DNA of 8,839 nucleotides from JAUWCW01 sp030609125 [NCBI: Candidatus Rokuibacteriota bacterium]. GTDB taxonomy: Bacteria > JAUVQV01. Of this stretch, positions 3,618 to 6,810 are shown piece by piece (position 1 is the stretch's first letter; each line of letters begins with the position of its first letter). The stretch lies in the NCBI GenBank assembly GCA_030609125.1, contig JAUWCW010000067.1:1-8839 (forward strand), given 5' to 3'. Under the pieces are notes generated by a model. The model had not been told where the DNA came from and did not search any database. It saw nothing but the letters and a program-made list of their open reading frames with translations. The position numbers and the translations under genes were made by a program.

Positions 3618-3706
3618 GATTAATTGTGCAGTATCTGTTCGCAGACGAGAATAGTACAGAAGATAAGCCGCACAATCCTCTCAAATGGCTGTGCGGCTCT
3701 TTTTTT
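3618..3706 (+). ncRNA. Candidate attenuator leader (or ~90-nt small RNA) upstream of the cold-shock gene
   Basis: No coding frame is seen here, yet a promoter and a strong intrinsic terminator bracket about 90 nt. The RNA has a UUCG tetraloop hairpin (TCTG-TTCG-CAGA, 3634-3645). ATTGTGC (3623-3629) can pair with GCACAAT (3670-3676), which overlaps the left arm of the terminator. The two pairings exclude each other, as in transcription attenuators. Either this is a regulated leader of the cold-shock gene, giving a 5' UTR of about 190 nt (long leaders are known for cspA-type genes), or it is a free-standing small RNA. Confidence 0.4.
3666..3706 (+). terminator. Strong intrinsic terminator inside the cold-shock leader
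   Basis: AGCCGCACA (3666-3674) and TGTGCGGCT (3690-3698) form a perfect 9-bp stem with a 15-nt loop, followed by C and seven Ts (3700-3706). No gene on the plus strand ends nearby, which points to a leader terminator or the end of a small RNA. Confidence 0.8.
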
Positions 3707-3730
3707 GGACTGTAAGCGGACAGACTGCCA

Positions 3731-3787
3731 ACCCGGGCGGCCGGTGGTTATCCGGGTCTTTCAATGAAGTAGTTCCCCTGGGGGAAC
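3731..3787 (+). promoter_or_regulatory. Structured 5' leader hairpins before the cold-shock ribosome-binding site
   Basis: Two stems are visible: ACCCGG/CCGGGT (3731-3736 with 3752-3757) and GTTCCCC/GGGGAAC (3772-3778 with 3781-3787; the tight turn would open to a 4-nt loop). The second ends 7 nt before AAAGGAG. Structured leaders that control translation by temperature are known for cspA; that role here is inferred. Confidence 0.4.
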
Positions 3788-3809
3788 AAAGCGCAAAGGA
3801 GCAGTGAAA

Positions 3810-4010
3810 GTGGCACAGGGAACAGTGAAGTGGTTTAATGCGGACAAGGGTTTTGGTTTTATCACTCAGGATGAGGGGGGCGACGTTTTCGTTCACCATT
3901 CCGCAATCAAGGGAGAAGGCTTCAAGTCTCTTGATGAGGGGGCACGTGTCGAGTTCGATGTCGTCCAGGGCACCAAAGGGCCGGCCGCTGAAAACGTGAC
4001 CGTCCTCTAA
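3810..4010 (+). CDS. Cold-shock domain protein (CspA family)
   Basis: This is a 66-residue single cold-shock domain, a five-stranded OB-fold that binds single-stranded RNA and DNA and melts RNA secondary structure. It shows [15 protein letters not shown] (RNP1 core KGFGFI, residues 13-18) and DVFVHHSAI (RNP2, 26-30), and ends in AAENVTVL as is usual. The GTG at 3810 is chosen because AAAGGAG ends 8 nt upstream and gives the family-typical [10 protein letters not shown]; the in-frame GTG at 3804 would sit only 2 nt from the same site. It is followed by its own strong terminator and preceded by a long structured leader, so it is probably monocistronic and regulated after initiation. Whether it is induced by cold cannot be told from sequence. 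Confidence 0.96.
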
Positions 4011-4024
4011 GATCTTATGTTTGG

Positions 4025-4063
4025 AAGAGCCATGCCCGGCATCCCGCGGGGCATGGCTCTTTT
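4025..4063 (+). terminator. Intrinsic terminator of the cold-shock gene
   Basis: AAGAGCCATGCCC (4025-4037) and GGGCATGGCTCTT (4049-4061) form a perfect 13-bp stem with an 11-nt loop, ending in a short T-run, 14 nt after the stop. The A-rich left end also makes it partly bidirectional. Confidence 0.9.
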
Positions 4064-6033: not shown

Positions 6034-6810
6034 ATGTCTCTCGAGCGGATCGTTGCCGGCACGGGCATCGTGCCCTCGCTTCTCGCCCTGTCTCTCGCTT
6101 TCGCGCCGCCGGCCGCTGCCGGGGAAGAGAGACTCTTCGCCTTCTTTCACCGCGGAGGGGACAAGGGCGAAAGGCATGTGCTCGGGGAGAAGGAACTGAG
6201 TGCTGCACGGTCCGCCCTGCAGGACCTGCAGGGCGAGGCGCGCCTGGTGCTCTTCACGGAGGAGAAAGACTGCAAGGAGTGCGGCGAGGCGGAGGTCCTC
6301 ATGAGAGAGATCGCCTCCTGTTCGCCGAAGGTGAGCCTCGAGGTTCTCTCCCTCTCTGCCGAGAACAGCCGGGCGGAGGAACTGGGCGTTGACAAGGTGC
6401 CGGCAGTCGCCCTGCTGGGCTCCGCCGATACCGGCATACGCTACTACGGGCTTCCCCTCGGCTACGAGTTCGAGACGTTCGTGAATGCCGTGCGGCGCGC
6501 GGCGGAAGGGGAACCGGAACTGGCGCCGGAGACCATGGACGCACTCGGAGGGCTGGAAAAGCCGGTAACCATAACGGTCTTTGTTGCGGATACCTGAAAG
6601 TACTGCCCCGAGGTGGCCCGGGTGGCCTACGGGATGGCAATCGGGAGCGACAGGGTCAGAGCGGAAATCATCGACATTCAGACCTTCCCGCGGATCACCA
6701 GGAAACACAGGGTGAGCGCAATACCGAAGACCTTTATCAACTACGACGATGCCTTCATCGGCACCGAGGAAGAGGCTGAGATTCTTGACCGGGTGATGCG
6801 GGCCCGGTGA
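6034..6810 (+). CDS. Exported tandem-thioredoxin-fold disulfide oxidoreductase, probable selenoprotein (TGA = Sec188)
   Basis: Reading the in-frame TGA at 6595-6597 as selenocysteine gives one 258-residue protein. Residues 1-29 look like a signal peptide (hydrophobic VPSLLALSLAFAPPAAA, cleavage near AAA-GEE). Two thioredoxin folds follow, as in the protein disulfide oxidoreductase/glutaredoxin-like family. Fold 1 is RLVLFTEEKDCKECGE, with Cys80-x-x-Cys83 and cis-Pro123 in KVPAV. Fold 2 is ITVFVADT-U-KYCPEVARVAYGMA, with Sec188-x-x-Cys191 and cis-Pro231 in AIPKTF. Relatives as I recall them have CPYC at the second site, so TGA replaces exactly the first catalytic cysteine. It would catalyse thiol-disulfide exchange in the periplasm; most relatives are cytosolic, so the leader is unusual. 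The ribosome-binding site is weak (GGGG 2 nt from ATG), perhaps because a palindromic insertion uncoupled it from serC. A single nonsense mutation in a CxxC gene is the main alternative. Confidence 0.75.
6604..6639 (+). promoter_or_regulatory. SECIS-like hairpin after the in-frame TGA
   Basis: A lower stem TGCC/GGCA (6604-6607 with 6636-6639) and CCG/CGG (6608-6610 with 6630-6632) supports an upper GGCC-CGGGT-GGCC hairpin (6615-6627). Its apical loop contains GGU, about 22-25 nt after the TGA. Bacterial SECIS elements lie immediately 3' of the UGA, with a short G-starting loop at roughly this distance, and bind SelB. The stem is interrupted (AA mismatch, GAT bulge) and the region is GC-rich, so chance structure is possible. 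Confidence 0.4.

What the first reader, a model, noticed from the sequence alone, without database searches (positions are those of the whole stretch)
6034..6810. Selenoprotein hidden by an in-frame TGA: exported tandem-Trx oxidoreductase with a UxxC site
Seen: the 187-codon frame ends in TGA and resumes in the same frame, with no gap in similarity, for 70 further codons. The TGA falls exactly where the second thioredoxin fold needs its first cysteine (ADT-TGA-KYC-P). Both cis-Pro loops are intact and there is no other stop. Known: bacterial thioredoxin-fold selenoproteins replace the catalytic Cys with Sec, often as UxxC, and anaerobic deltaproteobacteria are rich in them. Inferred: a Sec-containing member of the PDO/glutaredoxin-like double-fold family that also carries a signal peptide, a combination I do not recall as described.
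Basis: partly seen in the sequence, partly recalled or inferred. Interest (0 to 1): 0.88.

Follow-up and report, generated by a model that had tools for sequence, protein, structure and literature searches.

The report
Exported selenium-containing disulfide oxidoreductase
A bacterium from a poorly sampled lineage carries a gene whose internal stop codon is very probably read as selenocysteine, giving a two-domain redox enzyme of a known selenoprotein family that, unusually, appears to be sent out of the cytoplasm; the exported relatives found also use selenium.

Summary
In detail: 6034-6807 is one frame of 258 codons with a single TGA (6595-6597), exactly at the first Cys of the second CxxC of a protein disulfide oxidoreductase (PDO, TIGR02187). 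The genome has selA-selB, tRNA-Sec and a selD with its own in-frame TGA. A same-order relative has TGA at the same codon. In 16 of 16 PDO genes with an internal TGA (of 96 examined) it replaces this Cys. So it is very probably a selenoprotein (not shown chemically). Sec-PDO itself is not new: reviews list it (TIGR02187, UxxC). What looks new is export. The window gene has a signal-peptide-like leader with the codon statistics of a gene. The same-order relative, one gene of a second phylum and 7 of 7 full-length genes of a third have lipoprotein-like leaders. All 10 exported genes found carry Sec; none of 82 Cys-PDO genes examined has a convincing leader (3 incomplete upstream). Export was judged without a trained predictor. 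Most likely it is an envelope selenol/thiol-disulfide reductase; its donor (perhaps CcdA/DsbD) and substrate (apocytochrome c is one candidate) are inferred. Verdict: real, new exported variant of a known selenoprotein family; moderate interest.

The parts
6034..6810 (+). whole gene, 258 aa with U188, stop TGA 6808-6810
6034..6123 (+). in-frame N-terminal leader (about residues 1-30), signal-peptide-like: short n-region, hydrophobic stretch, small-residue cleavage region around A29/G30
   Evidence: sequence read by eye; mean hydropathy 2.25 over the best 10 residues; coding statistics start at 6034; residues 1-45 unordered in the model
6178..6180 (+). GTG that would be the alternative, cytoplasmic start, in register with leaderless relatives
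   Evidence: disfavoured
6187..6510 (+). first thioredoxin-fold domain, with C80-K-E-C83 (6271-6282) and P123 (cis-Pro position)
6565..6807 (+). second thioredoxin-fold domain, U188-K-Y-C191 and P231 (cis-Pro position)
6595..6597 (+). in-frame TGA, read as selenocysteine 188 (inferred)
6603..6637 (+). SECIS-like hairpin, -10.7 kcal/mol, loop G 17 nt after UGA (p = 0.154 against synonymous shuffles, not significant alone); a smaller hairpin at 6615-6627 has the sequence and register scored in G001
   Evidence: smaller hairpin in the window read from the sequence

Best explanation
The gene encodes an exported selenoprotein of the tandem-thioredoxin PDO family. UGA at codon 188 is decoded as selenocysteine by the genome's SelA/SelB/SelC/SelD system (inferred from genes and conservation). 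The leader directs export through the Sec translocon with signal-peptidase I cleavage; relatives are lipoproteins (inferred). Outside the cytoplasm, U188-C191 is the substrate-facing redox pair: the selenolate attacks a disulfide and C191 resolves the selenenylsulfide (inferred from the chemistry of Trx-fold enzymes). The N-domain pair C80-C83 relays electrons from a membrane donor of the CcdA/DsbD type (inferred by analogy). Most likely it acts as a reductase or isomerase of envelope protein disulfides.
For: Family: TIGR02187 above cut-off; Foldseek best match 2ywm, E 9.4e-21, TM 0.76/0.86, on a model whose 10-residue blocks from residue 51 on all have mean pLDDT 85 or more, after the TGA too. 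Sec: TGA at the catalytic Cys in 16 of 16 TGA-bearing PDO genes, no other stop within their matched cores; same-order relative at 42% identity has it; selA, selB, tRNA-Sec, selD with its own TGA; tRNA-Sec at 60 bits or more in 14 of 15 TGA-PDO genomes against 8 of 23 Cys-PDO genomes that I chose among the highest scorers, Fisher p 5e-4 (threshold set after seeing the gap between 53.5 and 63.0 bits). Coding statistics unchanged across the TGA. SECIS-like hairpins: combined p 8e-4 for 16 Sec genes against 0.64 for 75 Cys genes, 0.007 for five further exported genes. Export; G001, G106, G245, G372 and five more judged by eye. One CcdA/DsbD-type protein in G000.
Against: The SECIS test is not significant for this gene alone (p 0.154); p is 0.1 or less in 6 of 16 Sec genes, and G001 (0.667), G160 (0.468) and L037 (no hairpin) fail. 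A stricter first version found none here and no significant Sec/Cys difference after a GC filter (p 0.105). The leader was judged by a home-made scan and codon statistics, not by SignalP; codon support dips to +0.02 at 6154-6213, around the alternative start. The ribosome-binding site before ATG 6034 looks weak. G160 has a TGA-PDO but no good tRNA-Sec. No obvious partner gene lies beside it in the window. Donor and substrate are guesses; DsbB-type oxidases were not searched for.
Confidence: 0.83

Rival explanations
1. Sec-PDO, but cytoplasmic: translation starts at GTG 6178 and the upstream stretch is not part of the protein.
For: GTG 6178 is in register with the start of leaderless relatives; AAAGG lies just before it; residues 1-45 of the model are unordered; codon support is only +0.02 at 6154-6213.
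Against: Codon log-likelihood of 6034-6177 is +0.26 per codon in frame against -0.24 to -0.51 for the 180 bases before it, with the switch at 6034. The leader is hydrophobic and signal-like, and relatives have lipoprotein-like leaders.
Confidence: 0.12
2. Pseudogene or sequencing error: a nonsense mutation or miscalled base at a Cys codon of an ordinary PDO gene.
For: The assembly is fragmented (376 contigs); no reads were available.
Against: Same TGA in an independent genome at 42% identity and in 14 further PDO genes; no second lesion; codon bias kept after the TGA; Sec machinery present.
Confidence: 0.02
3. TGA is reassigned or read through genome-wide and gives another amino acid.
For: None found.
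Against: 3 of 10 window reading frames listed end in TGA, including this gene; a tRNA-Sec exists; the TGA sits at a redox Cys site.
Confidence: 0.01
4. The exported Sec-PDO is a dedicated reductant for apocytochrome c (CcmG/CcmH/ResA-like role). This is a possible refinement of the best explanation, not an alternative to it.
For: In G106 the gene lies beside a CcmH gene, with a thioredoxin gene next; in G001 it lies about 1.3 kb downstream of a multihaem cytochrome gene; cytochrome c assembly proteins in 5 of 5 exported-PDO genomes searched; CcdA/DsbD-type proteins in G000 and G001.
Against: No cytochrome gene beside it in the window; neighbours in G245 and G372 include PfkB kinases, MobA-like and PALP enzymes; cytochrome c assembly proteins are common (8 of 14 control genomes over cut-off); an OsmC-like gene lies directly behind it in G106.
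Confidence: 0.25

Closest known systems
Selenoprotein family 'Homolog of AhpF N-terminal domain (Grx-like domain protein)', TIGR02187 / NCBIfam PDO_seleno_TRX
   Same: Same family model, UxxC. In this survey the U is at the second CxxC in 16 of 16.
   Different: The window protein has a leader; its motif is UKYC, whereas 13 of the 16 have UPYC or UPHC. The passages of the reviews that I saw do not mention exported forms.
PDOs of archaea and Aquifex (1a8l, 1j08, 2ywm, 2ayt)
   Same: Fold; 24-29% identity in structural alignment.
   Different: Cys where this protein has U188 (in 2ywm, 2ayt and 1j08, aligned); cytoplasmic by recall; no such leader in the aligned region.
Exported lipoprotein-like Sec-PDOs found here (G001, G106, G245, G372, L157-L161)
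   Same: TGA at the same codon and an N-terminal export-type leader.
   Different: Lipobox-like leader instead of a signal-peptidase-I-like one; in all seven of the G245 group the N-domain CxxC is lost.
CcmG/ResA and other exported thioredoxin-like reductases
   Same: Possible role as an envelope thiol reductant (inferred).
   Different: Different family and architecture: tandem PDO, not a single TlpA-like domain (recalled).

Membership tests
TIGR02187 PDO (PDO_seleno_TRX) | Score above curated cut-off over full length | tested here: met
   201.8 bits against 185, model 4-209 of 209
TIGR02187 PDO (PDO_seleno_TRX) | Two tandem thioredoxin folds | tested here: met
   AlphaFold2 model pLDDT 83.3, pTM 0.78; best Foldseek match 2ywm, TM 0.76/0.86
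TIGR02187 PDO (PDO_seleno_TRX) | Redox CxxC (or UxxC) in each domain and both cis-Pro positions | tested here: met
   C80xxC83, U188xxC191, P123, P231
TIGR02187 PDO (PDO_seleno_TRX) | Cytoplasmic, no leader (usual by recall, not a formal criterion) | tested here: not met
   in-frame leader with coding statistics; localisation itself untested
Bacterial selenoprotein | In-frame TGA at a position that is Cys in homologues | tested here: met
Bacterial selenoprotein | selA, selB, selC, selD in the genome | tested here: met
Bacterial selenoprotein | SECIS hairpin just after UGA with G in the apical loop | tested here: inconclusive
   present, p 0.154 alone; group p 8e-4; not found by the stricter scan
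Bacterial selenoprotein | Selenium in the protein | not testable with these tools
   needs mass spectrometry or 75Se labelling
Exported protein (signal peptide) | Leader with hydrophobic core and cleavage motif, real coding sequence | tested here: met
   own scan and codon statistics; no SignalP; localisation untested
CcmG/ResA (TlpA-like) | Redoxin/AhpC-TSA domain as main match | tested here: not met
   AhpC-TSA only E 0.086, 13.2 bits against cut-off 26, and in the N-domain; Redoxin not listed

The most novel reading that the evidence does not exclude
Export and selenocysteine are coupled in this family: PDOs that moved to the cell envelope, perhaps more than once, are kept there only as selenoproteins, forming an unrecognised envelope thiol-reduction module (possibly serving cytochrome c maturation) in several little-sampled lineages.
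Probability: 0.3. Interest if true: 0.68.

Novelty: new variant of a known kind. Interest (0 to 1): 0.5.

Why it matters
PDOs are thought of as cytoplasmic enzymes (recalled). If Sec-PDOs serve the envelope, these bacteria have a selenium-dependent extracytoplasmic thiol-disulfide pathway that routine annotation could miss twice: by stopping at the TGA and, for the G245 group, because the family cut-off is not reached (127.9 and 126.9 bits against 185 for the two members scored). It also offers natural comparisons (exported Sec forms against leaderless Sec and Cys forms) for asking why selenocysteine is kept in redox sites.

Tried and rejected
Pseudogene or base error, and genome-wide TGA reassignment, were considered and rejected (see rivals). 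A stricter hairpin scan found no hairpin in the window gene and no significant Sec/Cys difference among genes with GC of 50% or more (p 0.105; p 0.002 without the filter). A broader enumeration with synonymous-codon nulls replaced it; both are reported. Whether all exported Sec-PDOs are one clade was not settled: free tree 3 changes with a bootstrap that had not settled; one clade not rejected (p-AU 0.139). Phylum searches gave no further genome for the window's phylum and one further genome without a match for that of G106. VKOR was not found in G000 and only just over the cut-off in G001; DsbB was not searched for. The host could not be named.

The leader scan first flagged 6 of 16 Sec and 3 of 80 Cys genes. 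On inspection I dropped G103 (TTG start ahead of a normal ATG), G023 (far upstream inside a long fused frame), G037 and G182 (GTG/TTG just before the usual start), leaving 5 of 16 and 0 of 80. G116 and G284, two full-length matches not fetched at first, were added: both Cys, no leader, so 0 of 82. In three of the Cys genes (G000b, G318, G101b) the frame is open to the end of the sequence held, with 42, 281 and 71 bases upstream, so a leader there is not excluded. The five leaders L157-L161 were judged by eye. The query was built from exported Sec forms, so exported Cys forms elsewhere were not specifically sought. The rows are not independent (three lineages), so the Fisher p of 7e-5 for 5 of 16 against 0 of 80 overstates the case. 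Partial matches, and those beyond its capped list, were not examined. Five Cys genes had no recognised site for the hairpin test (L039, G152, G253, G214, G306b). G116 and G284 are not in the tree or the hairpin test.

Full report
What is there. Reading 6034-6810 with TGA as a residue gives one frame of 258 residues with a single internal TGA at 6595-6597 and a TGA stop at 6808-6810. The read-through protein matches NCBIfam TIGR02187 'PDO_seleno_TRX' at 201.8 bits (cut-off 185) over residues 54-257, and solved PDOs of Aquifex and Pyrococcus (names). An AlphaFold2 model from six sequences has mean pLDDT 83.3 and pTM 0.78, with residues 1-45 unordered. Its best Foldseek match is 2ywm, E 9.4e-21. 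The TGA takes the place of the first Cys of the second CxxC; the N-domain keeps C80-K-E-C83.

Is the TGA selenocysteine? The genome (376 contigs, 92.4% complete) has a selA-selB operon, a tRNA-Sec with anticodon TCA (67.9 bits) and a selD that itself has an in-frame TGA, in the context UAAK; the review table gives UxxK for Sec-containing SelD. The only other held genome of the phylum, G001, has a relative at 42% identity with TGA at the same codon and a tRNA-Sec match of 71.9 bits. A search of 386 genomes with TIGR02187 found 69 genomes over the cut-off. Thirteen of these have a match with one TGA, and two more full-length TGA matches lie below it. With L037 this makes 16 TGA genes among 96 genes examined. 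In all 16 the TGA is the first residue of the second CxxC, and none has another stop in its matched core. Fourteen of the 15 TGA genomes have a tRNA-Sec match of 60 bits or more, the exception being G160 (42.9). Of 23 Cys-PDO genomes that I chose among the highest scorers, 8 have one (Fisher p 5e-4; threshold chosen after seeing the scores). TGA also works as a stop in this genome: 3 of 10 window reading frames, this gene included, end in it.

SECIS. Hairpins of SECIS type (loop G 16-37 nt after UGA, limits recalled from bSECISearch) were scored against synonymous-codon shuffles. The combined p was 8e-4 for 16 Sec genes and 0.64 for 75 Cys genes. The window gene has a hairpin of -10.7 kcal/mol with p 0.154, so it is not significant alone; p is 0.1 or less in 6 of 16, and L037 has none. 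A stricter earlier scan found none in the window gene, and its Sec/Cys difference (p 0.002) was not significant among genes with GC of 50% or more (p 0.105). Five further exported Sec genes gave a combined p of 0.007. In the G245 group the stem is very regular, and one pair changes on both sides between members (read by eye).

Is it exported? From 6034 on the frame shows coding statistics (+0.26 per codon for 6034-6177), against -0.24 to -0.51 in 60-base steps over the 180 bases before it. The switch falls at the ATG and not at GTG 6178, the start that a leaderless form would use, although support dips to +0.02 at 6154-6213. The leader reads as a signal peptide with a cleavage region near residues 29-30 (by eye). 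Against this, the ribosome-binding site looks weak and no trained predictor was at hand. Support comes from relatives: G001, G106, G245 and G372 have leaders ending in a lipobox-like Cys. In the phylum of G245, 8 of 12 genomes matched; 7 matches are full-length, all 7 have one TGA, and all 7 have lipoprotein-like leaders, five of them judged by eye; the start codon of L157 is unclear. The eighth match is short and different. In all, 10 exported genes were found and all 10 have the TGA. None of 82 Cys genes has a convincing leader (after setting aside three weak hits); in three of them the upstream sequence is incomplete. These are three lineages, not ten independent cases, and the query was itself built from exported Sec forms. 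G000 and G001 group together with good support (98/92). A single clade of all exported forms is not rejected (p-AU 0.139).

The same genome has a second, Cys-type PDO. It has a normal leaderless start, but its contig ends 42 bases upstream, so a longer start is not excluded.

How it may work (inferred). U188-C191 should be a fast selenol/thiol-disulfide exchange site, and C80-C83 may relay electrons from a membrane donor. G000 has one CcdA/DsbD-type protein, no VKOR match and four matches to cytochrome c assembly proteins. In G106 the exported Sec-PDO lies beside CcmH and OsmC-like genes, with a thioredoxin gene next. In G001 it lies about 1.3 kb behind a multihaem cytochrome gene. In G245 and G372 the neighbours give no hint, and in the window there is no obvious partner. 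A cytochrome c role is thus a lead only. In the G245 group the N-domain CxxC is lost in 7 of 7, so there the Sec domain must do the thiol chemistry without it.

What is known. Sec-containing members of this family are listed as 'Homolog of AhpF N-terminal domain (Grx-like domain protein)', TIGR02187, UxxC, in PMC9312934 (table passage) and PMC13188914 (table passage; another passage there says that Asgard archaea have it too). PMC1794560 (table passages) counts two, with Carboxydothermus hydrogenoformans and Symbiobacterium thermophilum listed as having it. In PMC13188914 the words signal peptide, lipoprotein, periplasm and extracytoplasmic do not occur. In PMC9312934 'signal peptide' does not occur and 'periplasm' occurs twice, the one place that I saw being in the reference list. 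In PMC1794560 neither 'periplasm' nor 'signal peptide' occurs. The paper searches listed no title or abstract start that describes an exported Sec-PDO. Of the listed papers I opened only these three, by passages; PMC11227280 on Asgard selenoproteins was seen as a listing only. Most subscription journals are not covered, so absence from print is not shown.

Verdict. Observation confirmed; interpretation supported with the correction that Sec-PDO is already known. The exported form is a new variant of a known kind.

Noticed in passing
window 3633-4060: cspA thermoregulator-like RNA, 61.2 bits, below the family's gathering score of 78, overlapping a small ORF at 3804-4010 that looks like a cold-shock protein.
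   Followed up: no
L082 4020-4637 (-): Second PDO of the same genome, Cys at both sites; a multihaem cytochrome gene lies on the same contig; contig ends 42 bases upstream.
   Followed up: partly
L140 5968-8401 (-): G106: thioredoxin, CcmH, lipoprotein-like Sec-PDO and OsmC-like genes in a row on one strand.
   Followed up: partly
L155-L161: Lipoprotein-like Sec-PDO group that has lost the N-domain CxxC in 7 of 7; the two members scored fall below the TIGR02187 cut-off.
   Followed up: partly
L073: G160 has a TGA-PDO but no good tRNA-Sec match (42.9 bits), though its same-family relative G299 has one (71 bits).
   Followed up: no
L092 about 1141-2208: SelD with in-frame TGA, probably a second selenoprotein of the genome.
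   Followed up: yes
L119, L128: Two PDO-like genes close together on one strand in G101 and in G306.
   Followed up: no
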